Assembly: GCA_038049695.1 (NCBI GenBank)
Contig: CP142451.1
Span: forward strand, 124,841,501-124,905,500
Reading direction: 5' to 3'
Source of the DNA: Cinnamomum chago
Taxonomy: Eukaryota; Streptophyta; Magnoliopsida; Laurales; Lauraceae
DNA: 64,000 bases
Below, piece after piece: positions 5,067 through 63,886 of the stretch (position 1 is the stretch's first letter; every line of letters begins with the position of its first letter). The position numbers and the translations under genes are program-made. The notes below the pieces were generated by a model. It was given only the letters and a program-made list of their open reading frames with translations, ran no database searches and was not told the origin of the DNA.

Positions 5067-5098
5067 GTAAGAGGAAATCAACTTAAAGCATATTATGT

Positions 5099-5135
<37 letters not shown>

Positions 5136-6121: not shown

Positions 6122-6128
6122 GAACAAG

Positions 6129-11247: not shown

Positions 11248-11278
<31 letters not shown>

Positions 11279-15650: not shown

Positions 15651-15684
15651 TATATATATATATATATATAAATATATATATATA
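15651..15684. repeat. (TA)n microsatellite
   Basis: An interrupted TA run. The paralogous site in copy C (about 21447) has only GTATATATAAAAAAAA, so the array expanded after the duplication. Confidence 0.8.
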
Positions 15685-15905
15685 AAACAATCGTTTTATA
15701 TTTGATGGATGATATCCTCCAACTCAAAAAGAAGATTTTGATTGTTTTCTCTGCCAGATTTTGATTGTTTTCTCTTCCTCCATATGTGAAAAGTTTTCTC
15801 CTACATGGAATGCCATCAGTACCATCCCCAATGGCGGGACCCCTAAATTTCATGGGTCACGCCGTGACGAAGTGGGTGTGCGTAAATCTATGAACGCTCT
15901 GTTTT

Positions 15906-19379: not shown

Positions 19380-19560
19380 ATCATGATCTTCTTTGATCAA
19401 CCTCTTTCTTCACTGCAAACAGCAAGCTGATTCCATCTTTGACTATGGAATACAACTCTTCTACAACAATTGATCACACAAGTGCATCTGTTGCCATGCT
19501 ATCTTTCTTTAGTGTGCACAGAAGATCTTTGTGTGCAAAGCTGCTTCACTTAGTCCTGAG
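19380..19560 (-). pseudogene. CNL CC-domain remnant, copy C
   Basis: The sequence aligns with 2960-3110 of the CC-domain fragment: AGTGCATCTGT(TGC)CATGCTATCTTTCTT and CTTAGTCCTGAGTTACA match AGTGCATCTGTCATGCTATCTTTCTT and CTTGGTCCTGAGTTACA. Frame is lost. It is the 5' part of a CC-NB-LRR gene on the minus strand, leading straight into the shared 5' flank. Confidence 0.65.
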
Positions 19561-21665
19561 TTACATAGGTATAGCAACATTAAGATATTGAAAATCTTTC
19601 TTGGATTGTTGGGAAAGAATTAAGTAGGAGAACAACATTGTGTAAAGGCGATTGACCTTACATGTTGTACTAAACTAAAGCAGATGGGTGTCCTCACTCA
19701 TTATGTTTAAGGATTCTTAAGATATCTACTTGATTAATTAGAAAAAAAACCACCTATAATAATATGTTTAAGCTTTTTCTTATTTTGGTCCGAGCAGGAA
19801 TGGACAAGTGGTCAAAAATACGAAATACCATCAGTAGTTTGGAATACCCAATTATAAATGCTCATTTTTTAATTAAACTTTAACATTGTACTATCAATCC
19901 AGGCTAATTGGGACATACAGGCAAAATGAGATTAATTTGATTTAAAATATCAGAGATAATTTTAGTGCATATAATTTTCGAATTGAATCGTTAAAATATT
20001 GCTAATTAATTGTCGGTCGTATGACCATACTTTCAAAATATCGCCATTATCCCGATACGCATCATTGCATAGAAAAAAAAACAAGAAAAAGAAAAGAAAA
20101 GAAAGAGTCACACCTGTTGAGGAGTGGAATCCACCCGAGGGGATTAATAAAAAGTAATTATGCTGCCTCGAGATTTTGGTTGGAATGGTATGGCTGGAAA
20201 AAATTAATATGGTATTAGAGCAGTGCTGCTAGGTTTGGTTTACTGAGGGAGAGTGTTTATTTTTTTGGTAAAACTGGGGGAGTGTTGAGGTTAGATTAAG
20301 AAACTTAATAATACCAGACGTACTTCTTCCTCTTTAATTATTCTACTTGCTCTTACACGTATTCTTCTTTCTTTCACTTCTCTCATTTCTCTTCTTCTGT
20401 TCTTCCCTTTCCTCCTCTTTCCCTTCCTCCCCGGTGATGAAATGAAATGGGTTCACCTCTTTCTTTCCCTTCAGTCCCGCCCTATCTGAAGCAATTACAC
20501 GAGGAAAACATAAAAGCAAGATCCTTTGAATTTCCTACGTTGAATTCACGTGATCTCGAGTGCTAAGGAGGACCCAGTGTCCCCAACGTGTGACCAGCAT
20601 TGCAGGCACCACCGCACCGTGATTCACATTCATACAGACACAATACCTTGACTGGAATTATTTTAACACAAGGACAGAGTGGGGAAGTATTTGAATAACA
20701 TTTGACACATGACCATGTAATTGATATTAGCATAAAACTCAAGTGAAAATTGAAACAAATGGAAAATCGAAACACGGACAATTGAACATACAGCCAGATG
20801 GAAAATGCTTTTAAGTTAATGCCCAGTACCACTTGTGAGTTGTGAGGCGCGGTGGGTTACATCAGCAACAAAATCCAAATCCACCCGTCCAAAGAAAATC
20901 AATAACAAACCCGTCCCTCATAGGAGTGGGGCAGGGAGGGCGGGTCCCATTTAAACCCGGACCGTTGCGATCCCTAACTACGATAAAATATTTAGTGGGA
21001 CAGAGTAACCCTACATAAATTCATTTTTATCAATACATGGCCCATTTCATTAAATTTAAATCGATCACAATGACAATTAACATTTGTTCTTATAATTGGT
21101 TAAAATTGACTCAGTCCATGCAGAAGCCCTTATTAGTTTGATGAGAGTTTTAAATAGATTAGTAGGCTTTATGTGCAGGGGAGAATTTGCGAGAGACAAC
21201 TGGGACGTGAGATAAAATAATGATATGTTTATAAATAATGACATACTTATCTTTGTTTAAGAAATTTAAGGGCAGAGTTGTCATTTTTATTTTTTTTAAA
21301 TCAACACAAATCTTTTGGTGGTTGCTTATTATTGTTATGAGTAGTGATTTTGGGGATATGGATGATATTAAAATAAAAAAGCAGGCGGTATATGCAAATA
21401 TTGAAACCTCAAAGCCTATTTACAAATTCTATAAATCTTAGGGCGGTATATATAAAAAAAAGGCTCAATCCTTTTATATTTGATGGATGATATCCTCCAA
21501 CTCAAGAAAGAAAGATTTTGATTGTTTTCTCTTCCTCCTTATGTGAAAAGTTTTCTCCTGCATTGAATACCATTTGTACCATCCTCAAAGGTGGGACCCC
21601 CGAATTTTATGGGCCCCGCCGTGACGAAGTGGGTCTGCGTATATCATTGAACGCTCTGTTTGGAT
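19545..21665. repeat. Segmental duplication copy C (empty-site copy)
   Basis: Collinear with 10705-15905 but lacking the 2.9-kb LTR: it reads CCAGACG-TACTT-CTTCCTC at about 20315-20332. It also lacks the TA expansion. The left edge joins the CC-domain remnant and the right edge ends at AACGCTCTGTTT. No intact coding sequence is present. Confidence 0.85.
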
Positions 21666-31269: not shown

Positions 31270-31849
31270 GGGTTTCTTGTTGCGGCTCTTTAAATTCTTT
31301 TGTTATGGATTTTCTATGTATTTCCATTTCTATTTTGTATTTTTTAATGTTTTTATGGATTTATTGCCTTGAATTGTGAGATAATTTTATTATTGATTCT
31401 CTCACTTCCATTGGGTTTTATGAGTTTCTTGTTGATGGGTTTCTTTGGACATGTATTTCTTTATTTTCTTTTTTTGCTTAAATTTTTGGTTTTTGGGTAA
31501 TGAAATCTTCTGGGTTTTATTTGTTCCTTCTAAATTACCTTTACCAATGTATTGTTTATGGATCTTCATTTTTATATATTTTTGGTTTATGAACTTTTAT
31601 TTTCATGTTGTATTTTTATGGTGTTTTATCAGTTTTATTTCTTTAGTTAATTCTTCTAATGTCAAAAGAATGCTTGAAGTAAAATACTCAACTAATTTTA
31701 AACAAATTAAAGTTCTCTCATTTTAAAATTAACCAATTATATACTTTCTTTATTATTATATATTTTTTATGGCAATTTTTATCATCTCGATATAATCTAA
31801 TCTAAATATTATTTTAAAAAATATTTTTTTAATATTATAAATTACATTG
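31270..31849. other. A/T-rich DNA between gene candidate and tandem array
   Basis: Very A/T-rich, with no coding support (a 93-codon plus frame at 31445-31726 is a Phe/Trp-rich artefact). It ends abruptly where the array begins. Confidence 0.4.
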
Positions 31850-33474
31850 CTCTCCCTTTTACGTTGTTAGTGTCGTTTAGAAAAAAAAAAACCCCAAGAG
31901 GAAAAGAAGCAAGTTTATTGATTATTCTTCACTTGGGGTCCACACCTTGTTAACTTTCGGTCACTTTCTTCTTTCTTCTTAATTGCTGTTTTTTCTGAGT
32001 CATCGAGCACATAAGGAAACGAGGCAACCGTAGCTAGTTCCTTTGTAGGCAATATTGGGCATATCTTTAGAGTGGTAGTGGACCCCCACCGGACGTACGT
32101 GGGGCAACAGCCACACTGTTGGTGTCGTTAACGTGTGGGTCAAATCCCTCTAAATGCGGTATCGTTAATCTAACAATGTTAGTATCTTTTGAGTCAAATT
32201 AAGATCGACAGATGGACTCAATTGATCCGCTAAATTTTTGACATCCCGGATCGTGGAGATTATTGGATACTCAAATTTGGAAATCCGGTTTTGCATCCAC
32301 CGTGGCCCCTTCATTCCATGTTTTGATCGAAATGTGTTGTTCTTTCTCGGACATGGATGTTGAAATCTTTTGATTGAAAAGGGCGATCCGGATTTTCGCC
32401 TGTTAGATCTTTCTTGTATCTCTGCATCGTCATATTTCATTCCAAATTTTTAACAATGTGTCTATGTCGTCCTAATGTGGAGGCTGACATCTTTCGATGC
32501 ATATAGACGATTGGGAGGATCGTTTAATGGACCCGTCATGTATCCCAATTGGGACGGATCATATCATAACCCTTAGTGAACTTCACGATATTAATATGAT
32601 CTTAATGGCTAGGTACCGAGGCGAAAAATCCAAACAGGGGAGTCGCTTTGGCGTTGATAGTAAACATTTGAAAAAAAAAAAAAAAAGAAGAGAAGAAGCT
32701 AGCACATCTTTTATTCTTCATTCAGGGTCCACGCTTTGTTGACGTTCGATCCCTTGCTTTTTTCTTCTTAATTGCCCGTTTTTCTGTGTCTTCAAGTACA
32801 AAAGTAAACTATGCAATTGTAACTACTTCCTCTATTGCCAGTATTGCACATATCTGTGGAGTGGTAGTGGACCCCCACCGGCTGTACTTGGAGCATCAAT
32901 TAAATTGTTGCTTTTTTTAAATTGGTTTGGGGCTTGTTTTAGGCTCCATTTGGGATGCGAACAAGTGGGTCTGATCCCTCACAGTGCAGTCTTCATAATC
33001 TTTAAATGTTTGGATCTTTTGAGGATATTTGGGATTGATGGCCAGGCTCACCTGATTCAGCAAATTTATAACGTGGAACCAAAATCGTGTATAATAGTTT
33101 TGATTTGAGTTTGGGAATCAAGTTTTGCATCCACCTTGGCCCCTTCATTCCATGTTTTGACCGAAATGTGTTCCTTTTTCCCGAACATGAATGTTAAGAT
33201 TTTTTGATGCAAAAACACGATCTAGAAGACCGTGGGCTCGATCTATCACGTATCCCTATAGCAACAAATTTAATTTCAAAATTTATCGTACTTGAGTACA
33301 TGTTGTCCTAATCTGGAGTTTGGATTCTTTGGATAAATAATGACGATCGAGCGGATCGTGTGCTAGACCTGTCATGTATCCTAATTGTGATGAATCCGAC
33401 GATAATCCTTAAGAACTTCAAGATATTCATGTAATCAGAATCGCTAGGTACCGAGGAGGGATGTCTAATTATGG
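31850..33474. repeat. Array unit 1
   Basis: The first unit starts abruptly just before its A-monomer A-run. The A half has GATTGAAAAGGGCGATCC. The B half has GGCGTTGATAGTAAACATTTG and GGGGCTTGTTTTAGGCTCCA, variants otherwise seen in unit 8. Confidence 0.85.
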
Positions 33475-35105
33475 CTCTCCCTTTTACGTTGTTAGTGTCG
33501 TTTTGAAAAAAAAAAAACCCCAAGAGGAAAAGAAGCAAGTTTATTGATTATTCTTCACTTGGGGTCCACACCTTGTTAACTTTCGGTCACTTTCTTCTTT
33601 CTTCTTAATTGCCGTTTTTTCTGAGTCATCGAGCACATAAGGAAACGAGGCAACCGTAGCTAGTTCCTCTGTAGGCAATATTGGGCATATCTTTAGAGTG
33701 GTAGTGGACCCCCACCAGACGTACGTGGGGCAACAGCCACACTGTTGGTGTCATTAACGTGTGGGTCAAATCCCTCTAAATGCGGTATCGTTAATCTAAC
33801 AATGTTAGTATCTTTTGAGTCAAATTAAGACCGACGGATGGACTCATTTGATCCGTTAAATTTCTGACATCCGGGATCGTGGAGATTATTGGAGACTCGA
33901 ATTTGGAAATCCGGTTTTGCATCCACCGTGGCCCCTTCATTCCATGTTTTGATCGAAATTTGTTGTTCTGTCCCGGACATGGATGCTGAAATCTTTTGAT
34001 GCAAAGGGACGTTCCGGATTTTCGCCAGTTAGATATTTCTAGTATCTCTGTAGCGTCATATTTCATTCGAAAATTTTAACAATGTGTCTATGTGACTATG
34101 TCGTCCTAATGTGGAGGCTGACAACTTTCGATGCTTATAGACGATTGAGAGGATCGTTTAATGGAACCGTCATGTATCCCAATTGGGACGGTTCATATCA
34201 TTACCCTTAGTGAACTTCACGATATTAATGTGATCATAATGGCTAGGTACCGAGGCGAAATATCCAAACAGGGGAGTGGCTTTGGGGTTGATAGTAAACA
34301 TTTAAAAAAAAAAACAAGAAGAGAAGAAGCAAGCACATCTTTTATTCTTCATTCGGGGTCCACGCTTTGTTGACGTTCGGTTCCTTGCTTCTTTCTTCTT
34401 AATTGCCCGTTTTTCTGAGCCTTCAAGTACAAAAGTAAACTGTGCAATTGTAACTACTTGCTCTATTGGCAGTATTGCACATATTTGTGGTGTTGTAGTG
34501 GACCCCCACCGGCTGTACTTGGAGCATCAATTAAATTGTTGGTTTTGTGAAATTGGTTTGGGACTTGTTTTAGGCTCGATTTGGGACACGAACAGGTGGG
34601 TCTGATCCCTCACAGTGCGGTCCTCATAATCTTTGAATGTTTGGATCTTTTGAGTCTATTTGAGACTGATGGCTGGCTCAAATGATTCAGCAAATTTATA
34701 ACGTGGAACCAAAATCGTGTATAATAATTTAGACTTGAATTTTGGAATCAAGTTTTGCATCCACCTTGGCCCCTTCATTCCATGTTTTGACCGAAATGTG
34801 TTCCTTTTTCCCTAACATGGATGTTAAGATTTTTTGATGCAAAAACATGATCTAGAAGACTGTGGGCTAGATCTATCACGTATCCCTACAACAATAAATT
34901 TCCTTTCAAAATTTATCGTACTTGAGTACATGTTGTGCTAATCTGGAGTTTGGAATCTTTGGATAAATAATGACGATCGAGCGGATCGTGTGCTAGACCT
35001 GTCATGTTTCCCAATTGTGACGGATCCGACGATAATCCTTAACGAACTTCGAGATATTCATGTAATCAGAATTGCTAGGTACCGAGGAGGGATTTCTAAT
35101 TATGG
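33475..35105. repeat. Array unit 2
   Basis: The A half carries the CCCTCTAAATGCGGTATCG form and GATGCAAAGGGACGTTCC, shared with unit 4. The B half ends GTAAACATTTAAAAA, as in units 3 and 4. Confidence 0.85.
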
Positions 35106-36734
35106 CTCTCCCTTTTACGTTGTTAGTGTCATTTTGAAAAAAAAAAAAAAAAAAACCCCGAAGAGGAAAAGAAACAAGATTATTGATTATTCTTCACTTG
35201 GGGTCCACACCTTGTTTACTTTCGGTGACTTTCTTCTTTCTTCTTAATTGCCGTTTTTTCTGAGTCATCGAGCACATAAGGAAACGAGGCAACCGTAGCT
35301 AGTTCCTTTGTAGGCAATATTGGGCATATCTTTAGAGTGGTGGTGGACCCCCATCAGCCGTACGTGGGGCAACAGCCACACTGTTGGTGTCGTTAACGTG
35401 TGGTTCAAATGCCTCACATTCCGGTATCCGTAATCTTACAATGTTGGTGTCTTTTGAGTCAAATTAAGACCGACGGGCGGACTCAATTGATCTGCTAAAT
35501 TTCTGACATCCTGGATCGTGGAGATAATTGGATACTCGAATTTGGAAATCCGGTTTTGCATCCCCTGTGGCCCTTTCATTCCATGTTTTGATCGAAATGT
35601 GTTGTTCTTTCCCGGACATGGATGTCAAAATCTTTTGATTGAAAAGGGGGATCCGGATTTTCGCCAGTTAGATCTTTCTTGTATCTCTGCATTGTCATAT
35701 TTCATTCCAAATTTTTAACAATGTGTCTATGTCGTCCTAATGTGGAGGCGGACAACTTTCTATGCTTATAGACGATTGAGAGGATCGTTTAATGGAACCT
35801 TCATGTATCCCAATTCGGACGGTTCATATCATAACCCTTAGGGAACTTCACGATATTAATGTGATCATAATGGCTAGGTACCGAGGCGAAATATCCAAAT
35901 AGGGGAGTCGCTTTGGGGTTGATAGTAAACATTTAAAAAAAAAACAAGAAGAGAAGAAGCAAGCACATCTTTTATTCTTCATTCGGGGTCCACGCTTTGT
36001 TGACATTCAGTTGCTTGCTTCTTTCTTCTTAATTGCCCGTTTTTCTGAGCCTTCAAGTACAAAAGTAAACTATGCAATTGTAACTACTTGCTCTATTTGC
36101 AGTATTGTACATATCTGTGGAGTGGTAGTGGACCCCACCTTCTGTACTTGGAGCATCAATTAAATTGTTGGTTTTGTGAAATTGGTTTGTGACTTGTTTT
36201 AGGCTCGATATGGGACGCGAACAGGTGGGTCTGATCCCTCACAGTGCAGTCCTCATAATCTTTGAATGTTTGGATCTTTTGAGTCTATTTGAGATTGATG
36301 GCTAGGCTCAATTGATTCAGCAAATTTAAAACGTGGAACCAAAATCGTGTATAACAGTTTAGACTTGAATTTGGGAATCAAGTTTTGCATCCACCTTGGC
36401 CCCTTCATTCCATGTTTTGACCGAAATGTGTTCCTTTTTCCCTAACAAGGATGTTAAGATTTTTTGATGCAAAAACCCGATCTATAAGACCGTGGGCTGG
36501 ATCTATCACGTATCCCTATCGCAACAAATTTCATTTCAAAATTTATCGTACTTGAGTACATGTTGTCCTAATCTGGAGTTTGGAATCTTTGGATAAATAA
36601 TGACGATCGAGCGGATCGTGTGCTAGACCTGTCATGTATCTCAATTGTGACGGATCCGACGATAATCCTTAAGGAACTTCAAGATTTTCATGTAATCAGA
36701 ATCGCTAGGTACCGAGGAGGGATGTCTAACTATG
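35106..36734. repeat. Array unit 3
   Basis: The A half carries the GCCTCACATTCCGGTATCC form and GATTGAAAAGGGGGATCC, shared with unit 5. The B half is of the unit 2/4 type. A-run of about 19. Confidence 0.85.
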
Positions 36735-38366
36735 GCTCTCCCTTTTACGTTGTTAGTGTCGTTTTGAAAAAAAAAAAAACCCGAAGAGGAAACGAAGCAA
36801 GTTTATTGATTATTCTTCACTTGGGGTCCACACCTTGTTAACTTTTGGTCACTTTCTTCTTTCTTCTTAATTACCGTTATTTCTGAGTCATCGAGAACAT
36901 AAGGAAACGAGGCAACCGTAGCTAGTTCCTCTGTAGGCAATATTGGGCATATGTTTAGAGTGATAGTGGACCCCCACTGTCCATACGTGGGGCAACACCG
37001 CAGCAGCCACACCGTTGGTGTCGTTAACGTGTGGGTCAAATCCCTCTAAATGCGGTATCGTTAATCTAACAATGTTAGTAACTTTTGAGTCAAATTAAGA
37101 CCGACGGATGGACTCATTTGATCCGTTAAATTTCTGACATCTCGGATCGTGGAGATTATTGGAGACACGAATTTTGAAATCCGTTTTTTCATCCACCATG
37201 GCCCCTTCATTCCATGTTTTGATCGAAATTTGTTGTTCTTTCCCGGACATGGATGCTTCAATCTTTTGATGCAAAGGGACGTTCCGAATTTTCGCCGGTT
37301 AGATCTTTCTAGTATCTCTGTAGCGTCATATTTGATTCCAAATTTTTAACAATGTGTCTATGTCGTCCTAATGTGGAGGCTGACAACTTTCGATGCTTAT
37401 AGACGATTGAGAGGATCGTTTAATGAAACCGTCATGTATCCCAATTGGGACGGTTCATATCATAACCCTTAGTGAACTTCACGATATTAATGTGATCATA
37501 ATGGCTAGGTACCGAGGCGAAATATCCAAACAGGGGAGTGGCTTTGGGGTTGATAGTAAACATTTAAAAAAAAAACAAGAAGAGAAGAAGCAAGCACATC
37601 TTTTATTCTTCATTCGGGGTCCACACTTTGTTGACGTTCGGTTCCTTGCTTCTTTCTTCTTAGTTGCCCGTTTTTCTGAGTCTTCAAGTACAAAAGTAAA
37701 CTATGCAATTGTAACTACTTGCTCTATTGGCAGTATCGCACATATCTGTGGAGTGGTAGTGGACCCCCACCTTCTGTACTTGGTGCATCAATTAAATTGT
37801 TGGTTTTGTGAAATTGGTTTGGGACTTGTTTTAGGCTCGATTTGGGACGCGAACAGGTGGGTCTGATCCCTCACAGTGCGGTCTTCATAATCTTTGAATG
37901 TTTGGATCTTTTGAGTCTATTTGTGACTGATGGCTGGCTCAAATGATTCAGCAAATTTATAACGTGGAACCAAAATCGTGTATAATAATTTAGACTTGAA
38001 TTTTGGAATCAAGTTTTGCATCCACCTTGGCCCCTTCATTCCATGTTTTGACCGAAATGTGTTCCTTTTTCCCTAACATGGATGTTAAGATTTTTTGATG
38101 CAAAAACACGATCTAGAAGACCGTGGGCTAGATCTATCACGTATCCTTACAGCAACAAATTTCATTTCAAAATTTATCATACTTGAGTACATGTTGTCCT
38201 AATCTGGAGTTTGGAATCTTTGGATAAATAATGATGATCGAGTGGATCTTGTGCTAGACCTGTCATGTATCATAATTGTGACGGATCCGACGATAATCCT
38301 TAACGAAGTTCGAGTTTTTCATATAATCAGAATTGCTAGGTACCGAGGAGGGATGTCTAATTATGG
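36735..38366. repeat. Array unit 4
   Basis: The A half is as unit 2 (GATGCAAAGGGACGTTCC), with a short insertion ACACCGCAGCAG shared in part with units 6 and 7. The B half is as units 2 and 3. Confidence 0.85.
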
Positions 38367-39998
38367 CTCTCCCTTTTACGTTGTTAGTGTCGTTTTGAAA
38401 AAAAAACTAAAAAACCCGAAGAGGAAAAGAAGCAAGATTATTGATTATTCTTCACTTGGGGGTCCACACCTTGTTAACTTTCGGTCACTTTCTTCTTTCT
38501 TCTTAATTGCCATTTTTTCTGAGTCATCGAGCACATAAGGAAACGAGGCAACCGTAGGTAGTTCCTCTGTAGGCAATATTGGGCATATCTTTAGAGTGGT
38601 GGTGGACCCCCACCGGTCGTACGTGGGGCAACAGCCACACTGTTGGTGTCGTTAATGTGTGGTTCAAACGCCTCACATTCCGGTGTCCGTAATCTTACAA
38701 TGTTAGTGTCTTTTGAGTCAAATTAAGACCGACGGGCGGACTCAATTGATCCGCTAAATTTCTGACATCCCGAATCGTGGAGATTATTGGATACTCGAAT
38801 TTGGAAATCCGGTTTTGCATCCACCGTGGCCCCTTCATTCCATGTTTTGATCGAAATTTGTTGTTCTTTCCCGGACATGGATGCTGAACTCTTTTGATTG
38901 AAAAGGGGAATTCGGATTTTCGCCGGTTAGATCTTTCTTGTTTCTCTGCGTTGTCATATTTCATTCCAAATTTTTAATAATGTGTCTATGTCATCCTAAT
39001 GTGGAGGCTGACAACTTTCGATGCTTATTGACGATTGAGAGGATCGTTTAATGGAACCGTCATGTATCCCAATTGGGACGGATCATATCATAACCCTTAG
39101 TGAGCTTCACGATATTAATATGATCTTAACGGCTAGGTACCGAGGCGAAAAATCCAAACAGGAGAGTTGCTTTGGGGTTGATAGTAAAAATTTCAAAAAA
39201 AAAAACTAGAAGAGAAGAAGCAAGCACATCTTTTATTCTTCATTCGGGGTCCACGCTTTGTTGACGTTCGGTCCCTTACTTCTTTCTTCTTAATTGCCCG
39301 TTTTTCTGTGCCTTCAAGTACAAAAGTAAACTATGCAATTGTAACTACTTCCTCTATTGCTAGTATTGCACATATCTGTGGAGTGGTAGTGGACCCCCAC
39401 CGGCTGTACTTGGAGCATCAATTAAATTGTTGGTTTTTTGAAATTGGTTTGGGACTTGTTTTAGGCTCGATTTGGGACGCGAACAGGTGGGTCTAATCCC
39501 TCACAGTGCGGTCCTCATAATCTTTGAATGTTTGGATCTTTTGAGTCTATTTGAGATTGATGGCCAGGCTCAACTGATTCAGCAAATTTATAATGTGGAA
39601 CCAAAATCGTGTATAATAGTTTAGACTTGAATTTTGGAATCAAGTTTTGCATCCACCTTGGCCCCTTCATTCCATGTTTTGACCGAAATGTGTTCCTTTT
39701 TCCTTAACGTGGATGTTAAGATTTTTTGATGCAAAAACACGATCTAGAAGACCGTGGGCTAGATCTTTCACATATCCCTATAGCAACAAATTACATTTCA
39801 AAATTTATCGTACTTGAGTACATGTTGTCCTAATCTGGAGTTTGGAATCTTTGGATAAATAATGACGATTGAGCGGATCGTGTGTTAGACCTGTCATGTA
39901 TCCCAATTGTGACGGATCCGACGATAATTCTTAATGAACTTCGAGTTATTCATGTAATCAGAATCGCTAGGTATCGAAGAGGGATGTCTAATTATGGC
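38367..39998. repeat. Array unit 5
   Basis: The A half is as unit 3 (GCCTCACATTCCGG, GATTGAAAAGGGG). The B half switches to the GTAAAAATTTCAAAA type shared with units 6 and 7. Confidence 0.85.
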
Positions 39999-41644
39999 GC
40001 TCGCTTTTACGTTGGTAGTGTCGTTTTGAAAAAAAAAAAAAAAAAAAACCCGAAGAGGAAACGAAGCAAGTTTATTGATTATTCTTCACTTGGGGTCCAC
40101 ACCTTGTTAACTTTTGGTCACTTTCTTCTTTCTTCTTAATTGCCGTTTTTTCTGAGTCATTTAGAACATAAGGAAACGAGGCAACCGTAGCTAGTTCCTC
40201 TGTAAGCAATATTGGGCATATGTTTAGACTTTAGAGTGATAGTGGACCCCCACCGTCCGTACATGGGTAACACCGCAACAGCCACACTGTTGGTGTCGTT
40301 AACGTGTGGGTCAAATCCCTCTAAATGGAGTATCGTTAATCTAGCAATGTTAGTATCTTTTGAGTCAAATTATGACCGACGGATGGACTCAATTGATCCG
40401 TTAAATTTCTGACATCCTGGATCATGGAGAGTATTGGAGACTCGAATTTGGAAATCTGGTTTTGCATCCATCGTGGGTCCTTCATTCCATATTTTGATCT
40501 AAATTTGTTGTTCTTTCTCGGACATGGATGCTGAATTCTTTTGATGCAAAAGGACAATCCGGATTTTCGCCGGTTTGATCTTTCTAGTATCTCTGCAGCG
40601 TCATATTTTATTCCAAATTTTTAACAATGTCTCTATGTCGTCCTAATGTGGAGGCTGACAACTTTCGATGCTTATAGACGATTGAGAGGATCGTTTAATG
40701 GAACCGTCATGTATCCCAATTGGGACGGATCATATCATAACCCTTAGTGAACTGCAAGATATTAATATGATCTTAATGGCTAGATACCGAGGCAAAAAAT
40801 CCAAACAGGGGGGTTGCTTTGGGGTTGATAGTAAAAATTTCAAAAAAAAAACAAGAAGAGAAGAAACAAGCACATCTTTTATTCTTCATTCGGGGTCCAC
40901 ACTTTGTTGATGTTCGGTCCCTTGCTTCTTTCTTCTTAATTGCCCGTTTTTCTGTGTCTTCAAGTACAAAAGTAAACTATGCAATTGTAACTACTTCCTC
41001 TATTGGCAGTGTTGCACATATCTGTGGAGTGGTAGTGGACCCCCACCGGCTGTACTTGGAGCATCCATTAAATTGTTGGTTTTTTGAAATTGGTTTGGGA
41101 CTTGTTTTAGGCTCGATTTGGGACGCGAACAGGTGGGTCTGATCCCTCACAGTGCGGTCCTCATAATCTTTGAATGTTTGGATCTTTTGTGTCTATTTGA
41201 GATTGATGGCCATGCTCAACTGATTCAGCAAATTTATAATGTGGAACCAAAATCGTGTATAATAGTTTTGACTTGAATTTGGGAATCAAGTTTTGCATCC
41301 ACCTTGGCCCCTCCATTACATGTTTTGGCCGAAATGTGTTCCTTTTTCCCTAACATGGATGTTAAGATTTTTTGATGCAAAAACACGATCTAGAAGACCG
41401 TGGGCTAGATCTATCACGTATTCCTATAGCAACAAATTACTTTTCAAAATTTATCGTACTTGAGTACATGTTGTCCTAATCTGGAGTTTGGAATCTTTGG
41501 ATAAATAATGATGATCGAGCGGATCGTGTGCTAGACCTGTAATGTTTCCCAATTGTGACGGATCCGACGATAATCCTTAACGAACTTCGAGATATTCATG
41601 TAATCAGAGTCGCTAGGTACCGAGGAGGGATGTCTAATTATGGC
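39999..41644. repeat. Array unit 6
   Basis: The A half has GGGTAACACCGCAACAGCC and AAATGGAGTATCG, nearly matching unit 7. The B half is of the GTAAAAATTTC type. Confidence 0.85.
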
Positions 41645-43283
41645 TTTCCCTTTTACGTTGGTAGTGTCGTTTTAAAAAAAAAAAAAAAAACCCGAAGAGG
41701 AAACGAAGCAAGCTTATTGATTATTCTTCACTTGGGGTCCACACCTTGTTAACTTTTGGTAACTTTCTTCTTTCTTCTTAATTGCCGTTTTTTCTGAGTC
41801 ATCGAGAACATAAGGAAATGAGACAACCGTAGCTAGTTCCTCTGTAGGCAATATTGGGCATATGTTTAGAGTGATAGTGGACCCCCACCGTCCGTACGTG
41901 GGTAACACCGCAACAGCCACACTGTTAATGTCGTTAACGTGTGGGTCAAATCCCTCTAAATGGGGTATCGTTAATCTAGCAATGTTAGTATCTTTTGAGT
42001 CAAATTATGACCGACGGATGGACTCAATTGATCCGTTAAATTTCTGTCATCCCGGATCTTGGAGAGTATTGGAGACTCGAATTTGGAAATCTGGTTTTGC
42101 ATCCACCGTGGGCTCTTCATTCCATATTTTGATCGAAATTTGTTGTTCTTTCTCGGACATGGATGCTGAAATCTTTTCATGCAAATGGACGAGCCGGATT
42201 TTCGCCGGTTAGATCTTTCTAGTATCTCTACAGCGTCATATTTCATTCCAAATTTTTAACAATGTGTCTATGTCGTCCTAATGTGGAGGCTGACAACTTT
42301 CGATGCTTATAGACGATTGAGAGGATCGTTTAATGTAACCGTCATGTATCCCAATTGGGACGGATCATATCATAACCCTTAGTGAACTTCACGATATTAA
42401 TGTGATCTTAATGGCTAGATACCGAGGCGAAAAATCCAAAAAGGGGAGTTTCTTTGGGGTTGATAGTAAAAATTTCAAAAAAAAAAAAAAAAAACAAGAG
42501 AAGAAGCTAGCACATCTTTTATTCTTCATTCGGGGTCCACGCTTTGTTGACGTTTGGTCCCTTGCTTCTTTCTTCTTAATTGCCTGTTTTTCTGTGTCTT
42601 CAAGTACAAAAGTAAACTATGCAATTGTAACTACTTCCTCTATTTGCAGTATTGCACATATCTGTGGAGTGGTAGTGGACCCCCACCGACTGTACTTGGA
42701 GCATCTATTAAATTGTTGGTTTTTTGAAATTGGTTTGGGACTTCTTTTAGGCTCGATTTGGGACGTGAACCGGTGGGTCTGATCCCTCACAGTGCGGTCC
42801 TCATAATTTTTGAATGTTTGGATCTTTTGAGTCTATTTGAGATTGATGGCCAGGCTCAACTGATTTAACAAATTTATAACGTGGAACCAAAATCGTGTAT
42901 AATAGTTTAGACTTGAATTTGGGAATCAAGTTTTGCATCCACCTTAGCCCCTTGATTCCATGTTTTGGCCGAAATGTGTTCTTTTTTCCCTAACATGGAT
43001 GTTAAGATTTTTTGATGCAAAAACACGATCTAGAAGACCGTAGGCTAGATCTATCACGTATCCCTATAGCAAAAAATTACATTTAAAAATTTATCGTACT
43101 TGAGTACATGTTGTCCTAATCTGGAGTTTGGAATCTTTGGATAAATAATGACGATCGAGCGGATCGTGTGCTAGACCTGTCATGTATCCCAATTGTGACG
43201 GATTTGACGATAACCCTTAAGGAACTTCGAGATATTCATGTAATCAGAATCGCTAGGTACTGAGGAGGGATGTCTAATTATGG
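41645..43283. repeat. Array unit 7
   Basis: The A half is as unit 6 (GGGTAACACCGCAACAGCC). The B half is of the GTAAAAATTTC type with an expanded A-run. Confidence 0.85.
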
Positions 43284-44916
43284 CTCTCCCTTTTACGTTG
43301 TTAGTGTCATTTTGAAAAAAAAAAAAAAAACCCCAAAGAGGAAACGAAGCAAGTTTATCGATTATTCTTCACTTGGGGTCCACACCTTGTTAACTTTCGG
43401 TCACTTTCTTATTTCTTCTTAATTGCCGTTTTTTCTGAGTCATCGAGCACATAAGGAAACAAGGCAACCATAGCTAGTTCCTCTGTAGGCAATATTGGGC
43501 ATATCTTTAGAGTGGTAGTGGACCCCCACCGGCCGTACGTGGGGCAACTGCCGCACTGTTGGTGTCGTTAACGTGTGGGTCAAATGCCTCACATTCCGGT
43601 ATCCTTAATCTTACAATGTTGGTATCTTTTGAGTCAAATTGAGACCGACGGGCAGAGTCATTTGATCCGCTAAATTTCTGACATCTCGGATTGTGGAGAT
43701 TATTGGAGACTCGAATTTGGAAATCCGGTTTTGCATCCACCATGGCCCCTTGATTCCATGTTTTGATCGAAATTTGTTGTTCTTTCCCGAACATGGATGC
43801 TGAAATCTTTTGATGCAAAAGGGAAGTGCGATCCGGATTTTCACCGGTTAGATCTTTCTAGTATCTCTGCAGCGTCATATTTCATTCCAAATTTTTAACA
43901 ATATGTCTATGTCGTCCGAATGTGGAGGTTGCATCTTTCGATGCATATAGACGATTAAGAGGATCGTTTAATGGAACCGTCATGTATCCCAATTGGGACG
44001 GATCATATCATAACCCTTAGTGAACTTCACGATATTAATGTGATCATAATGGCTAGGTACCGAGGCGAAAAATCCAAACAGGGGAGTCGCTTTGGCGTTG
44101 ATAGTAAACATTTGAAAAAAAAAAAAAGAAGAGAAGAAGCTAGTACATCTTTTATTCTTCATTCAGGGTCCACGCTTTGTTGACGTTCGGTCCCTTGCTT
44201 TTTTCTTCTTAATTGCCCGTTTTTCTGTGTCTTCAAGTACAAAAGTAAACTATGCAATTGTAACTACTTCCTCTATTGCCAGTATTGCACATATCTGTGG
44301 AATGGTAGTGAACCCCCACCGGCTGTACTTGGAGCATCAATTAAATTGTTGCTTTTTTTAAATTGGTTTGGGGCTTGTTTTAGGCTCCATTTGGGATGCG
44401 AACAAGTGGGTCTGATCCCTCACAGTGCGGTCTTCATAATCTTTGAATGTTTGGATCTTTTGAGTCTATTTGGGATTGATGGCCAGGCTCACCTGATTCA
44501 GCAAATTTATATCGTGGAACCAAAATCGTGTATAATAGTTTTGATTTGAGTTTGGGAATCAAGTTTTGCATCCACCTTGGCCCCTTCATTCCATGTTTTG
44601 ACCGAAATGTGTTCCTTTTTCCCGAACATGAATGTTAAGATTTTTTGATGCAAAAATACGATCTAGAAGACCGTGGGCTCGATCTATCACGTATCCCTAT
44701 AGCAACAAATTTAATTTCAAAATTTATCGTACTTGAGTACATGTTGTCCTAATTTGGAGTTTGGATTCTTTGGATAAATAATGACGATCGAGCGGATCGT
44801 GTGCTAGACCTGTCATGTATCCCAATTGTGATGGATCCTACGATAATCCTTAACGAACTTCGAGATATTCATGTAATCAGAATCGCTAGGTAGCGAGGAG
44901 GGATGTCTAATTATGG
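43284..44916. repeat. Array unit 8
   Basis: The A half is of the GCCTCACATTCCGGTATCC type. The B half is closest to unit 1 (GGCGTTGATAGTAAACATTTG; GGGGCTTGTTTTAGGCTCCA; GATTTGAGTTTGGG). Confidence 0.85.
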
Positions 44917-46534
44917 CTCTCCCTTTTACGTTGTTAGTGTCGTTTTGAAAAAAAAACCCGAAGAGGAAAAGAAGCAAGTTTATTGATTATTCTTCACTTG
45001 GGGTCCACACCTTGTTAACTTTTGGTCACTTTCTTCTTTCTTCTTAGTTGCCGTTTTTTCTAAGGCACCGAGCACAAGGAAACGTGGCAACCATAGCTAG
45101 TTCCTTTGTAGGCTATGTTAGGCATTTCTTTAGAGTGGTAGTGGGCCCCCACCGGCAGTACGTGGGGCAACAACGACACTGTTGGTGTCGTTAACGTGTG
45201 GGTCTAATGCCTCACATTCCAGTATCCTTTATCTTACAATGTTGGTATCCTTTGAGTCAAATTAAGACCGACGGGCGGACTCAATTGATCTGCTAAATTT
45301 TTGACATTTCGGATCGTGGAGATAATTGGAGACTCGAATTTGGAAATTCGGTTTTGCATCCACCGTGGCCCCTTCATTCCATGTTTTGATCGAAATGTGT
45401 TGTTCTTTCCCGGACATGGATGCTGAAATCTTTTGATGCAAAAGGGCGATCCGGATTTTTGCCGATTAGATCTTTCTTGTATCTCTGCATCGTCATATTT
45501 CATTCCAAATTTTTAACATGTGTCTATGTCGTCCTAATGTGGAGGCTGACATCTTTTGATGCATATTGACGATTGAGAGGATCGTTTAATGGACCCGTCA
45601 TGTATCCCAATTGGGACGGATCATATTATAAGCCTTAGTGAACTTCACGATGTTAATGAGATCATAATGGCTAGGTACCGAGGCGAAAAATCCAAACAGG
45701 GGAGTCGCTTTGGCGGTGATGGTAAACGTTTAAAAAAAAACAAGAAGATAAGAAGCAAGCACATCTTTTTTTCTTTATTCGGGGTCCACGCTTTGTTGAC
45801 GTTCGGTCCCTTGCTTCTTTCTTCTTAGTTGCTCGTTTTTCTGAGTCTTCAAGTACGGAAGTAAACTATGCAATTGTAACTGCTTCCTCTATTGGCATTA
45901 TTGCACATATCTGTGGAGTGGTAGTGGAGCCCCACCGGCTGTACTTGGAGCATCAATTAAATTGTTGGTTTTGTGAAATTGGTTTGGGACTTGTTTTAGG
46001 CTCGATTGGGGACGCAAACATGTGTGTCCGATTCCTCACAGTGCGGTCTTTATAACCTTTTGTGGTATGGATCTTTTGAGTCTATTTGAGATTGATGGCC
46101 AGGCTCAACTGATTCACTAAGTTTATTACATGGACCCAAAATCGTGTAGAATATTAGACTGGAATTTGGGAATTGAGTATTGCATCCACCTTGGCCCCTT
46201 TATTTCATGTTTTGATCGAAATGTGTTCCTTTTTCCCTAAGTTGGATGTTAAGATTTTTTGATGCAAAAGCACGATCTAGAAGACCGTGGGCTAGATCTA
46301 TCACGTATCCCTATAATGACAAATTTCATTTTAGATTTTATCCTACGTGAGTACATGTTGTCCTTATCTGGAGTTTGGAATCTTTGGATAAATATTGTCG
46401 ATCAAGCGGATCGTGTGCTAGATTTGTCATGTATCCCCTTTGTGACGGATCCTAAGATAAACCTTAACGAACTTCGCGATATTCATGTAATAAAAATCGT
46501 TAGGTACCGAGGAGGGATGTCTAATTAAGGGAGT
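44917..46534. repeat. Array unit 9, beginning to diverge
   Basis: The A half is of the GCCTCACATTCCAGTATCC type. The B half has many private changes (GGCGGTGATGGTAAACG, GGGGACGCAAACATGTGTG), marking the start of right-edge decay. Confidence 0.85.
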
Positions 46535-47793
46535 CCCTTTTACGTTGTTAGTGACATTTTGAAAGAAAAAAAAATGAATAGGAAAAGAAGCAAGTTTATT
46601 GCTTATTCTTCACTTGGGCTCCACACTTTGTTAACTTTCTGTCACTTGCTTCTTTCTTCTTAATTGGCCTTTTTTCTTAGTCTTCGAGTACAGAAGGGAA
46701 CTATGCTGCTGTAGCTTGTTCCTCTGTGGGCAATATTGGGCATATCTTTTGAGTGGTAGTGGATCCCCATTGGCCGTACTTGGAGCAGCAACCACACTAT
46801 CGGTGTTGTTAAACGGGCTTGGGAGCATTTTTTAGACTTGCTTGATGTCGTGAACATGTGGGTGAAATCCCTCGGATTACGGTCTGCTTAATCTTAAAAT
46901 GCTCGGATCTTTTGAGTCAAATTATGACCGTTGGATGGACTCAATTGGTCTGCTAAATTTCTAACATAGATCCCGGATCATGGAGAATATTGTAGACTTG
47001 AACTTCAAAATCCAGTTTTGCATCCATTGTGTCCCCTTTCTTTCAATGTTTTGCCCGAAATGTGTTGTTGTTTCCCTATGCAAAAGGATGATTCGGATTT
47101 TCACTGGCTAGATCTTTCACGTATCCCTGTAATGACAGATTTCAGTCCATATTTTACTGAAATGTTTTGTGTTGTCCTAGTGTGGAGGTTGACATCTTTG
47201 GATGCATAAAGACGATCGAGATGATCGTTTAATAGACCTGTCATGTATCCCTTTTGTGACGGATCATTTCATAGCCCTTAATGTGCTTGACGATATTCAT
47301 GTAATCATAATCTCTAGGTACCGAGCAGAAAAATCTAATTAAGGGAGTCCCTTTGATGTTGATAGTGAACATTTAAAAAAAAAAAGAAAAAAAGAAGCAG
47401 GTTGTGCGATTATTCTTCACTTGGGACCCACACTTGGTTCACATCCCTTGCTTCTCTGTTCTGAATTGCTTATTTTTCCGAGTCTCCGAGGAAATTATGC
47501 ACCTGTACCTACTTCCCTTGCAAGCAATATCGGGCATATCTTTGGTGTGGCGGTGGATCCCCGCCAGCTGTACTTGAGCAGCAACCACATTGTTGGTTTT
47601 GTAAAACTGATTTAGGGTGATGTTTTATGCTTGGTTGGAGTAGTGAACATGTGGGTCAATTCTGCTACATCGCAGTCTGTTGAATCTTTCAATGTTGTTA
47701 TCTTTTGAGTCAAATTGGGACTAATGTATGGTTTCAATTGTTCCTCTTAATTTCTGACATGGACCACTGATCTTGGATGATATTTTAGGCGGA
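46535..47793. repeat. Array right end, two strongly diverged monomers
   Basis: Landmarks are still recognisable (ACTTGGGCTCCACACTTTG at 46611, ACTTGGGACCCACACTTGG at 47417, spacing about 805 bp). Identity is much lower than inside the array, and the homology fades near GACATGGACCACTGATCTTGG at about 47757-47780. Confidence 0.75.
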
Positions 47794-49830: not shown

Positions 49831-51567
49831 TTATCAAAGGAGATTAGAGAGTTTGAAATCTACCCTATAGGCCTTGTTTCTTTACATAGAACAGATAGGA
49901 ATTAAATGCGAAGAGGTCAAATGATCCCTGTTTTAGGATTATTAAAGAGGTGAGGGTGAAAGGACATAAAGGGGAGAATGAGATGGGTTCTTTAACTTTC
50001 CAAGAATTTAGAGGACTAGGTGATAGATTGGTTATCATTACTCTCTTCCTTGATTTAGATGGGATGCTGTTTGATGGTTATTTCTGGGTATTTACTTTTG
50101 ATTCTTCGTTTTTGACCGCTTGCAAGTATTCAAAGTTTGCATCGGGTTTTCAAGTAATGAATCCACTTGATGTTGCACTGACGGTAAGGGGTTTGGGTGA
50201 GCGAATAAGTTTTTATCTTTCCAGAGAAAAAAGTCCATATCTTTATTCACACCTGTATTTGAGGCGAGCTATGTGAAATTGGGTTTGAATTGATTTCATT
50301 GTGAGGATTGTAGACCCATAGGTATTAAAGTTCAGAAAGCACTTGTATTTTTGGTCAAGCATTTTTGCCCCACCTTGGGCTCACCAAACAGTGCAGTCCT
50401 TTCAGACTCACTACCACCCTTGCCTCATTCCACCAGTGAGTTCTTGATGAAACAGTTCTAGCCACACAAGCCAAATCTGACCCACTGTCATCCTTACCTG
50501 TACATATCACCCATACTGTCAATATTGGTATCTAAGTGGATATGAGACTATTATTTCATCTTTTTAGTTTAGAAAATACACCATTGTAGTTGATTAATTG
50601 ATAGATCAACTTATCTCTGACTCACACCACCAGTGGTTTTTTTGGCTTGGCCAATACGGGGTTCTTTTTTATTTTTAGGTTGCTTACAAAATTGGAAGGA
50701 GATATCAACTTTTCGATTCACATCATTTTTAGGTTGAATAAAAAGTGGAGAGATAGAGAGGTACGATGAGATAAGTCATACTTACAATTAGCTTGCATGC
50801 TAATGTACCAAGTTTAAAAGATAAAAAAATATGTGTTAATTTTAAAACTAAGCAAAAGGAATAATGATAGGTGCTAATTTCAAAATTAAGCTAGTAAAAT
50901 ACCAAAGTTTAAATTAGAAATTATTTAGAAAGATCAACAACATTTATATAAGTGATCCCAGTTTCTCTTTAGAATGTTCCTAGCTTTTCTGACGGAGGTT
51001 TTGTCAGGAAGTTAAGAAGGGTATGTCCTTTTGCTGCTAGGTCACATGGACACCTCAAGTCTTTGTGATTGACGACAATCAGGCCCAGTTTTAGCATTAA
51101 GATTTCCTTCCATTGATATGATCATATCCCTTTTGATTTGTAAACTGATTATTAAATAATAAAAACTTGAGACACACATTTATGAGGATCAGGATTTCAA
51201 CCCTCTCGTGTATTTGATAAACCAAGATAATATAGATTATTATTGTAAACCATTGATAATCCACACATGATTTGGACCGTTGCCACCTAGATCATGGTTT
51301 GTAGGGTGGTATACAGGTTAGGTTGGTATACCACACAGATTAGGTGGTATGTGTGCAAGAACACACATTTGAAAGATCCATTCGATTGAATTTCAAAACA
51401 GTGTATAGGTCAAAGATTGCTACAAAAATCTTTCTGGAAATGCAGTCTAGCCCTTTGGTGCCACTAGGGCCCACCTTTGATCAGCGGCCCCCACCCGCCC
51501 GTTGTCCACCCCCACCCCACCCACCACAAATATTAGCATCGCACCCATATTTATGCTCATCAAACTT
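49831..51567. other. Intergenic, no assigned gene
   Basis: A 108-codon plus frame at 49950-50276 has no recognised motif and no splice or promoter support. Pyrimidine tracts and the phrase GCCCACC are common plant intergenic sequence. Nothing else was recognised. Confidence 0.35.
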
Positions 51568-52289: not shown

Positions 52290-54960
52290 TTTAGGAAAGA
52301 TAAGTATATTATAGAAAAGATACTATTTCAAGAGAGTTTGTAGAAGGATAGTACATAGAAAGATAGAAACAGAAGAGATTATACATTAAAAGACGAGTTG
52401 AGAAAAGTAGCAGAGGAATGTATATATCGTGTAGCCGGTGAATCACTCTCATGGAGCAGTTGGTGAGTCAGGTCTGCAACTGTGTAGTTTAGCTGAACAC
52501 TATGAGACTGTAGCTGGTGAGAATCTTGAATGGAGTTGTGGAGAACCCATTCTTCCCTAGACAAAGTCACCCCCTAAGTTGACAACATTTCATGTTCGAC
52601 TGTTGGTTTTGCTGTTTCTGTGGCATGGTCCTGTAATTGTTGGATATCAATGTGACAGGCTGCAAGAATATGGTGAGGCAAATGAGTATTCAGAATTGTA
52701 ACAATGGGGAAAAATATGGGCTAATAAATGAGCTGCTTGATTTGCTAATCTTCTGCATAAATGAAACTACCACAATTTGTGATGCCTTCGTAAAGTTGTA
52801 ATTCTCTTCCACAGATGCATAAGATTTCAGCATATATTGCCTTGTTAATGAATGATATTAAAAATATTGGAACAGTCACTTTCAATAATCAAATTCTGAG
52901 TATGAAAAGCATCAGCTATATTGAGGCGTTGATGTAGAGCATGAATTTCAACCGCTACAGGAGACGCTGCTATACTTTACCAGCATATGCCAAAAGAGGA
53001 TGACCAATATGATTTCTAAAAATTCCACCAAATGGAGGACAACCATTCTTTCGGTAAGAAAGCCCCATCAAAATTCAGCTTGATATAATCAATTGGGGGA
53101 AGTAGCCAGTGAGAGGATGGAAAATGTATTGGGGAAGAAATTCTGTTTTTAAACCATTGCAATGTTCACCATTGGGTTAAGTGTTTTAAGGATGCGGAGA
53201 TAACATGTGTTTGGTGGAGAGGTTGATAATTAAAAATGTAACTATCTCTGTACTTCCAGATATACCATGTCACCATGATTCCCACTTTTCTATCCCAAGT
53301 AGAAGCCGACCAAAACCATTCTCTATATGTAAGAAAAGAAATAGGTTTATGGCAAGTGGGAGGGAATTTGAACCAAATTTGTCTGGGGAAAGAATAAGTG
53401 GTGAACAAATGATCAGTGGTCTCCATGACCAACCGACAATAAACACACACTGAATTGCTATCTGGTTGGATAGAATGAAGGCAGCTATTGGTGGGCAATT
53501 TTTGTGAAGCAAAGTCTTCCATGTAAACAATTTCAATTTAGACTGAATTGGCAAGGATAATGGGGCCCGATTTGTTGAGGCGCAATGGTTTTGTAAATGG
53601 CTTTTAAAGAGCAAGTACCTGCGAGTTCCTCATTCCAACAAAGTAAACCCTGACCACTGAGTTGGATCTGAAAAATATGAGGAAGCCAAGTGCTCCCTAA
53701 AAGCACTCTGATTCGCTGTTAGTGCCATCTAGGTTCCACATCGGAATTTTCAATAAGATCATTGACTTTAAGTGGTGGATGATTATTAACAGTAATCAAC
53801 AAAGAGAGGTGGAAATTGGGAATCCATTTATCACGGAAAACTTCAATTTGAGACCTATCCCCAACTACCCAAGAAAGATGGCCGCAGATAGCATTGCTGT
53901 ATGTAAGAAGTAATTTCCAGAAAGTTGAATCAGTTGGTTTTGGTGGACAAAGCTGAAATGCTGCGCGGCGAAGATAATTGTGAGCGAGACAGGTTGCCCA
54001 TAACTGATGTGGATAATGTAAAAAAACGCCAGGCCAGATGGAACAAAGATGCCTTAATATGAGATTCAGTATGTCTAAGGCCCAAGCCACCAAATTTGAT
54101 GTTACGAGTGCATTGATCCCAATGATAAAAGTTACCAGGAGAAATCTGTATAGGAAACCAATATGACGAGAAATCTTCTTAGAAGCAAGTTGAATAGGAA
54201 CCCAATAAGCATGAATATTTGCAATCACAGATTGGATTAGAATTTTCCTACCTGCATGAGAAAGAAAATTGGATGGCCAGGTGGAAATTTTTGAAGACAT
54301 GCATTGTTGAAGGGGGTGTTGCCAATGAACAAAGCTTGAAACATTGGTAAGACTCAAAGTAGCATGTTGATAGTGAATAGATTGGGATGAAGTGGAAATA
54401 CCCAAAATGTTCTTGGTATGTTGAATCTCAGTAGGAGTGGCTGTCTTAGAAAAAAGGACCTGACATTTGGATTTATTTACTTTCTGACCAGCTTCGTTTC
54501 CAAAACACTCAAGAATATCAAACAAAGAATTTAGCGATTTCTTTGTTGGATGAACAAAGAAAAGGAGATCATCCGCAAACTGTAATAGGGAAATATAAAT
54601 TCTGTTGGGAGCCACTTCAAGAGCAGCTAATAATTTTTGGTGAGTATAAAGATTGGTCATTTGGAAAAGAGATTCCGTGCAAAGTATGTATAAGTTGAAA
54701 GTAGATCACCCTCTCTGAGGCCACAAATTGGTTGAAAAGAAGTATAAGAGAGGCAAACATGAACATGAGCCATTTTAATTTGGGTTTGAGTCTTCCCAAG
54801 TGCCTGATTATAGGAATGTAAATGACCCGACCTTGACCAGGCATGAGGCCTAGCTTGAATCATGTACCTTAAACTTGATCTCAAGTCCAGCTTGAGAAGC
54901 CCTATTCGAGCCGGGCTTGACAATCTGAGCTAAATTGAGCTTGAGATTGAGTTGATTTTT
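52290..54960 (-). pseudogene. 5'-truncated L1-type LINE (reverse transcriptase to RNase H)
   Basis: In minus-strand order, FQPICGLREGDLLSTYTYF (about 54740-54690) and the catalytic box LLQFADDLLFF (about 54585) mark the reverse transcriptase, followed by the conserved EAGQKVNKSKCQVLFS. The zinc-binding RVT domain follows in shifted frames (KLKLFTWKTLLHK near 53530; CVYCRLVMETTDHLF near 53430). The start of RNase H is PPIDYIKLNFDGAFL near 53075. Downstream sequence to about 52290 is degenerate. The endonuclease and N-terminal part of the RT are missing, and several frame changes and stops are present. LINEs of this clade retrotranspose through target-primed reverse transcription; this copy is dead and looks 5'-truncated. 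Confidence 0.85.
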
Positions 54961-63689: not shown

Positions 63690-63886
63690 TTTTACCCAAA
63701 AAAAAGGCAATTTTTTTATGGCTATCGGAGGGTTTTCAATCCTTTGGGATGGACTAATCCCTCCGGGCCTAGAGGGAAGTCGGATAAACTCCCCCTGTAG
63801 CCCCTGCCTGGTAGTGCATTTTAGAACCTACAACCTTCGGATATAAACCATGAGAATAAGCCAACTGGGCTACCCCTTGCTCTAAT
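63690..63886 (-). mobile_element. tRNA-derived SINE, near full-length
   Basis: Minus-strand head GGGGTAGCCCAGTTGGCTTA (A box), B-box-like GTAGGTTCTAAAATGC, then a core containing GGGGGAGTTTATCCGACTTC and CTAGGCCCGGAGGGATTAGT. It ends in an A-rich stretch and GCC plus T-run. The layout matches Au-like plant SINEs. It lies about 120 bp from the other SINE piece. Confidence 0.6.

What the first reader, a model, noticed from the sequence alone, without database searches (positions are those of the whole stretch)
31850..47793. 16-kb dimeric higher-order tandem array, about nine 1.63-kb units
Two homologous ~0.8-kb monomers (A and B) alternate regularly for 16 kb. Units this long, with an organised dimer structure and no transposon coding capacity, are unusual: plant satellites are usually 150-400 bp. 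It could be a chromosome-specific macrosatellite, a centromere or heterochromatin repeat, or a tandemly amplified non-coding transcription unit. Seen: periodicity, A/B homology, A-run at the same place in every monomer. Inferred: any function.
Basis: seen in the sequence. Interest (0 to 1): 0.8.

Follow-up and report, generated by a model that had tools for sequence, protein, structure and literature searches.

The report
Long-monomer satellite array in plant chromosome
A 16-kb stretch of non-coding DNA made of two alternating 0.8-kb repeats is real; it is one of about ten local arrays of a small satellite family in the outer parts of this plant's chromosomes, an ordinary kind of repeat with unusually clear growth layers.

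Summary
In detail: window 31848-47788 is nine head-to-tail A-B dimers (A about 0.80 kb, B about 0.83 kb; copies 88-98% alike within a class, A versus B about 71%), followed by one older monomer and a truncated one. It is non-coding, and no rDNA is near. Genome searches put the family at ten array loci or more (about 230 kb, 0.02% of 1.06 Gb); the ten found lie in the outer sixth of five contigs, mostly with repeat classes of their own. So it is neither chromosome-specific nor centromere-like. The monomer consensus holds a 126-bp internal duplication; one locus has a 10-monomer unit (8,176 bp). At eight other loci the arrays lie beside, or on C2 inside, arrays or remnants of a second, unrelated repeat, in opposite orientation in 8 of 8; the window array shows no such repeat. 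Within-array mutations carry a CG and CHG methylation mark, and apparent conserved blocks vanish once methylation-prone sites are masked, so I find no sign of selected function. Best reading: a silenced long-monomer satellite grown by unequal crossing-over and conversion. Long-monomer satellites and A-B higher-order repeats are already known in plants: new member of a known kind.

The parts
31848..33472 (+). unit 1: monomers A1 31848-32636 and B1 32637-33472
33473..35103 (+). unit 2: A2 33473-34270, B2 34271-35103 (the query unit)
35104..36733 (+). unit 3: A3, B3
36734..38364 (+). unit 4: A4, B4
38365..39995 (+). unit 5: A5, B5
39996..41641 (+). unit 6: A6, B6
41642..43281 (+). unit 7: A7, B7
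43282..44914 (+). unit 8: A8, B8; B8 is 98.1% identical to B1, seven units away
44915..46528 (+). unit 9: A9, B9; the most divergent dimer (88.8-90.5% to the other units)
46529..47341 (+). older monomer A' (79-81% to A, 72-73% to B), not part of the homogenised dimers
   Evidence: CpG o/e 0.63 against 0.85-0.95 in units 1-9
47342..47788 (+). truncated old monomer B' (71-73% to A, 69-72% to B), right edge of the array
   Evidence: CpG o/e 0.39

Best explanation
It is a silenced, non-coding long-monomer satellite array. Growth came in layers. A 126-bp stretch was duplicated inside an ancestral monomer of about 0.8 kb (shown in the consensus). Monomers became tandem. In this locus two diverged monomers, A and B, were amplified together as a 1.63-kb dimer by unequal crossing-over and conversion (inferred from the pattern), leaving old monomers stranded at the right edge. 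The array is methylated in CG and CHG (inferred from the mutation spectrum) and shows no detectable constraint, so it is most likely a by-product of recombination and not a functional unit. Elsewhere the family lies beside or inside arrays of a second repeat that also occurs without it; the window array has lost, or moved away from, that context (inferred).
For: Dimer structure and stranded edge monomers. In a tree of 97 monomers of at least 600 bp from seven loci, monomers group largely by locus, so amplification is mostly local; exceptions are one C1:110.58 monomer and the related C8, C1:6.76 and C3 loci, which are partly interleaved. Internal 126-bp duplication, 80% identical, E 7e-29. A 10-monomer unit at C1:6.79-6.81 Mb: three marked variants each occur three times at 8,176-bp spacing. 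Transitions per site within nine monomer groups (91 of the 97 monomers): CG 0.49, CHG 0.51, CHH 0.19, A/T 0.10. CHG o/e is lower in arrays than in flanks in 7 of 7 regions. Homogenised cores have higher CpG o/e than edges in 6 of the 6 loci measured. Conservation blocks (variance above all 1000 shuffles) are no longer unusual when CG/CHG-prone columns are masked (157 of 1000 shuffles reach it). No coding signal. B1/B8 exchange across seven units.
Against: No methylation, RNA, small-RNA, read-depth or FISH data were available. CpG o/e of arrays (0.64-0.91) exceeds that of their flanks (0.37-0.50) in 7 of 7 regions, which long-term methylation alone does not predict; repeated homogenisation is my unproven explanation, and the core-edge difference is tiny at two of six loci. 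The CG excess over CHH is weaker in the arrays (2.6-fold) than in the non-array control flank (5.7-fold), and weakest in the C1:6.76 group; the signature is thus not special to the array, and the count (each variant once per column) saturates in deep groups. The assembly could misstate copy number, although divergence between units makes collapse of the listed units unlikely.
Confidence: 0.75

Rival explanations
1. The array is the expanded repeat region of a transposable element (as satellites that arise from tandem repeats of LTR retrotransposons), and moved with it.
For: Loci share kilobases of flank at 90-95% (C1:6.76, C3:129.57, C8:0.07). A second repeat (type II) is seen at eight of the nine other array loci (the ninth, C4:16.14, was not examined) and at dispersed places, 4 of 4 of which lack type I where fetched. 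These four share about 4-8 kb at 84-94% in the pairs I could see.
Against: All six frames of window 24-31.8 kb gave no Pfam match at E 0.01. To the right only ORFs of at least 100 aa were scanned, 4 of 5; they gave LINE-type domains at 53-55 kb. Direct repeats that bracket the array are only about 230 bp at 68%, no LTR pair. Dispersed type II copies lie next to a 5' region that looks genic, and C2 and C1:110.58 share a flank with gene-like ORFs, which fits segmental duplication better. Element ends were not found. Flanks of the other loci were not scanned with Pfam apart from four ORFs, which gave nothing above cut-off.
Confidence: 0.15
2. The array is a functional non-coding locus, for example a repeated enhancer or lncRNA unit like the maize b1 tandem repeats (recalled).
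For: Repeat unit near 0.8 kb, A-run at a fixed place, high CpG; the best 30-column stretch is 95.6% conserved between locus consensuses.
Against: Conservation clustering is explained by methylation-prone sites. No Rfam match. No protein domain was found in 24-31.8 kb to the left, so no target gene was seen there.
Confidence: 0.07
3. It is a centromeric or major heterochromatic satellite.
For: Head-to-tail array with a dimeric higher-order unit, as in many centromeric satellites.
Against: Ten loci found, 7-67 kb each, about 0.02% of the genome, in the outer 16.4% of contigs.
Confidence: 0.03

Closest known systems
Long-monomer plant satellites (Vicia faba, 687-2033-bp monomers; PMC5895790, passages)
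   Same: Non-coding head-to-tail arrays with monomers of 0.7-2 kb in a plant
   Different: Vicia long-monomer satellites are mostly pericentric, some centromeric; satellites there make 0.008-2.7% of the genome each. This family is distal, about 0.02%, with classes largely specific to each locus
Dimeric higher-order repeats of candidate centromere satellites (PMC4053949, passages)
   Same: A and B variants form one dimer that is repeated in tandem, with higher identity between dimers than between monomers
   Different: Monomer is several times longer, arrays are tens of kb and not at centromere-like positions
Satellites derived from LTR-retrotransposon tandem repeats, Lathyrus sativus (PMC7004042, passages)
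   Same: Short arrays at dispersed places, occasionally expanded
   Different: No retrotransposon LTR pair found around the window array; other loci not fully examined
Human macrosatellites D4Z4, DXZ4 (PMC3018141 and PMC3218863, abstract starts in the listing only)
   Same: kb-scale units, few loci
   Different: Longer units (3 kb for DXZ4 in the listing); sequence was not compared

Membership tests
Satellite DNA (long-monomer) | Head-to-tail tandem repeats in long arrays | tested here: met
Satellite DNA (long-monomer) | Non-coding | tested here: met
Satellite DNA (long-monomer) | Within-array homogenisation (concerted evolution) | tested here: met
   monomers group largely by locus, with interleaving among C8, C1:6.76 and C3
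Satellite DNA (long-monomer) | Silent, methylated chromatin | tested here: inconclusive
   CG and CHG transition excess points to it; no methylation data; CpG is not depleted
Higher-order repeat | Multi-monomer unit more alike between units than its monomers are to each other | tested here: met
   units 88.8-95.9% against A-B about 71%
Centromeric satellite | Large block at one central place per chromosome | tested here: not met
   ten small distal loci on five contigs; the list is a lower bound
Centromeric satellite | CENH3 association | not testable with these tools
   no ChIP data
rDNA intergenic spacer repeat | Adjacent rRNA genes | tested here: not met
   no Rfam rRNA in the 64-kb window; other loci not scanned
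LTR-retrotransposon-derived satellite | Array inside or homologous to an LTR element | tested here: inconclusive
   no LTR-like pair around the window array, no domain in 24-31.8 kb; right flank scanned only in part, other loci hardly at all
Macrosatellite with a gene in each unit (D4Z4 type, recalled) | Protein-coding unit | tested here: not met

The most novel reading that the evidence does not exclude
A satellite nested in a satellite: one repeat family was born inside arrays of an older, unrelated repeat that travels with duplicated gene-flanking segments, then grew its own dimer, pentamer and decamer hierarchies at different places, and in the window persists alone. GC-biased repair during homogenisation keeps CpG high in a methylated array while its unhomogenised edges decay, so the core-edge CpG difference would measure how recently an array was homogenised.
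Probability: 0.25. Interest if true: 0.45.

Novelty: new member of a known kind. Interest (0 to 1): 0.27.

Why it matters
Ten arrays of one family in one assembly, with different higher-order structures and old edges, form a natural series for how satellites start and grow outside centromeres. The CpG core-edge contrast set against a CG/CHG mutation signature is a simple, testable clock of homogenisation. The single array itself is ordinary.

Tried and rejected
Protein-coding tandem genes: rejected; longest open stretch is at chance, no Pfam match above cut-off in nine array ORFs. Structured RNA, tRNA or rDNA spacer: no Rfam match at gathering score and no tRNA in the window. Functional blocks: seemed present but vanish under the methylation control. 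Homology of the type I monomer to the type II repeat: none by nhmmer in either direction, best E 2.9. Type I monomers in dispersed type II loci: none in 4 of 4 fetched loci, best E 0.47. Termini of the larger dispersed segment: not found; the left boundary differs between copies and the right end lies beyond the letters I could fetch. The gene beside the dispersed copies was not identified (a resemblance to plastid-division PDV2 in L033 and to GH5 hydrolases near C2/C1:110.58 is recalled only). The species was not identified. Literature: four searches, listings of 12-15 papers each, named no family that I could tie to this one; sequence cannot be searched there.

Full report
Observation. The window is part of contig C1 (124,841,501-124,905,500) of a 1.06-Gb assembly in 14 contigs. 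Domains nearby (Rx_N, hAT, LINE-type) suggest a plant, an inference. A unit query gives nine tandem units from 31849 to 46527; the following 46529-47788 matches A or B at 67-75%. Units are 1614-1646 bp and 88.8-95.9% alike. Each is one A and one B monomer, about 71% alike; A copies are 89.2-95.7% alike, B copies 88.3-98.1%. The last monomers are outside both classes: A' is 79-81% to A and 72-73% to B; B' is cut after about 450 bp. Thus the right edge preserves an older state, and dimer amplification came later. B1 and B8, seven units apart, are 98.1% alike, so exchange spans the array.

It is not coding and not a known RNA. Stops number 18-39 per frame in each unit; the longest open stretch is matched in 37 of 100 shuffles. 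Eight of the 11 array ORFs of at least 100 aa, and one shorter, gave no Pfam match above cut-off. Rfam and ARAGORN found nothing in the window.

The family. Searches of the whole assembly found ten array loci: C1 at 1.96, 6.76-6.83, 110.58, 112.20, 113.87 and 124.87 Mb (the window), C2 101.37, C3 129.57, C4 16.14 and C8 0.06 Mb. Spans, taken as outer limits of the hits with insertions included, run from 7 to 67 kb, about 230 kb in all, 0.02% of the assembly; each lies in the outer 16.4% of its contig. The tool scores only its best candidates (22 of 65, 25 of 81), so ten is a lower bound and the distal position holds for those ten. Several loci are duplicates of each other, so they are not ten independent cases. 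A 32-base core with up to 3 mismatches occurs 193 times, and 0 times when the pattern is read backwards; the places listed (0 mismatches and part of those with 1) fall in six of the loci, the rest were not shown.

Local growth. In a tree of 97 monomers of at least 600 bp from seven loci, monomers group largely by locus. Exceptions: one C1:110.58 monomer sits with C1:112.20, and the C8, C1:6.76 and C3 loci, which share flanks, are partly interleaved; the joining of window A with window B is weakly supported. Organisation differs: a dimer in the window; near-identical monomers about 4,081-4,087 bp (five monomers) apart at C1:6.77 Mb; a decamer at C1:6.79-6.81 Mb, where three marked variants each occur three times at 8,176 bp; about 0.72-kb units on C2; about 0.41-kb units at C1:1.97 Mb. 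The family consensus itself has a 126-bp tandem duplication, 80% identical, E 7e-29. So duplications are layered from 126 bp to 8 kb.

Context. Three loci (C1:6.76, C3:129.57, C8:0.07) share flank at 90-95% beyond the array's right edge; C2 matches them at about 80% in part of it. Next to the array is a second repeat, type II, unrelated to type I by nhmmer both ways. Type II, or at C1:112.20 a short remnant, is found at eight of the nine other array loci and in 8 of 8 in the opposite orientation to type I; C4:16.14 was not fetched, though a piece of the shared flank lies 10 kb from it. On C2 type II lies on both sides of the array. Type II also occurs at dispersed places; the four fetched hold type II but no type I (4 of 4). 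In array orientation the order is a shared segment, type II, type I, type II on C2; elsewhere it is partial, and on C8 the shared segment is followed directly by type I. I read this as type I arrays arising inside type II arrays; insertion, or loss of type I elsewhere, is not excluded.

The window array shows no type II at E 1e-6. Its flanks do give weak matches to the shared flanks of other loci: about 100-330 bp at 66-74%, at 50.0-50.1, 51.6-52.0 and 63.7-63.9 kb. Those at 51.6-52.0 kb recur elsewhere in the window, so I take them as dispersed repeats; the other two are unexplained. That the window array lost its old context is therefore likely, not shown.

Chromatin and constraint. Transitions per site within nine monomer groups (91 of 97 monomers) are 0.49 at CG, 0.51 at CHG, 0.19 at CHH, 0.10 at A/T; in non-array shared flank 0.255, 0.152, 0.045 and 0.037. 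Both point to CG and CHG methylation, the pattern of silenced plant repeats (general knowledge), and the CG contrast is stronger in the flank (5.7-fold over CHH against 2.6-fold); it is weak in the C1:6.76 group. CHG o/e is lower in arrays than in flanks in 7 of 7 regions, but CpG o/e is higher, 0.64-0.91 against 0.37-0.50, in 7 of 7. CpG o/e is also higher in homogenised cores than in edges in 6 of 6 loci measured (C1:110.58 was not), strongly in the window (0.85-0.95 per unit against 0.54) and C3 (0.97 against 0.54), barely in C1:6.76 (0.78/0.76) and C1:112.20 (0.80/0.79); core and edge limits were set by me. Homogenisation that resets decayed sites, perhaps with GC-biased repair, would give this; greater age of edges, without such repair, is the simpler alternative. 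Conservation between 12 class consensuses is clustered (observed variance above all 1000 shuffles), but after masking CG/CHG-prone columns 157 of 1000 shuffles reach the value. This removes my only sign of selected function.

Literature. Passages of PMC5895790 report 17 of 26 putative Vicia faba satellites with 687-2033-bp monomers and name other long-monomer plant satellites. Passages of PMC4053949 describe A-B dimers as a prevalent higher-order form in animals and plants. Passages of PMC7004042 describe satellites from LTR-retrotransposon repeats; passages of PMC10048060 describe dispersed euchromatic satellites.

Verdict. The array is real and ordinary in kind: a long-monomer satellite with dimeric higher-order structure, probably silenced, without evidence of function. 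Its family is a good series for studying satellite growth.

Noticed in passing
window 4890-10029: hAT-like element with BED finger, DUF659 and hAT dimerisation ORFs and a 305-bp x 2.8 tandem repeat at 5229-6077; a relative (79-94% in pieces) interrupts the type II array at C8, about 75.2-84.3 kb.
   Followed up: partly
window 53169-54705, strand -: LINE-like remnants: RVT_1 (below cut-off) and zf-RVT.
   Followed up: no
window 2712-3191, strand -: Rx_N domain as in NB-LRR resistance genes, a fragment or first exon.
   Followed up: no
window 14422-15904 and 20317-21661; 10713-11526 and 19549-20325: Direct repeats of 1.3-1.5 kb (79%) and 0.8 kb (83%) in the left flank, outside the array.
   Followed up: no
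window 50019-50107 and 63711-63879: Weak matches (104 and 170 bp, 72-74%) to dispersed type II locus L032 and to the C2 flank, unexplained.
   Followed up: no
G000 C1:6.77-6.83 Mb: Largest array of the family, about 65 kb, with pentamer and then decamer (8,176 bp) units.
   Followed up: partly
L030-L033 and C3:54.31, C12:44.41, C5:64.28 Mb: A 5' gene-like region next to dispersed type II arrays; three further copies match about 620 bp of it at 95-96%. Gene not identified.
   Followed up: partly
C1:110.59 Mb and C2:101.36 Mb flanks: Array flanks share segments at 79-84% with ORFs that resemble glycosyl hydrolase family 5 (recalled; not scanned), suggesting duplicated loci.
   Followed up: no
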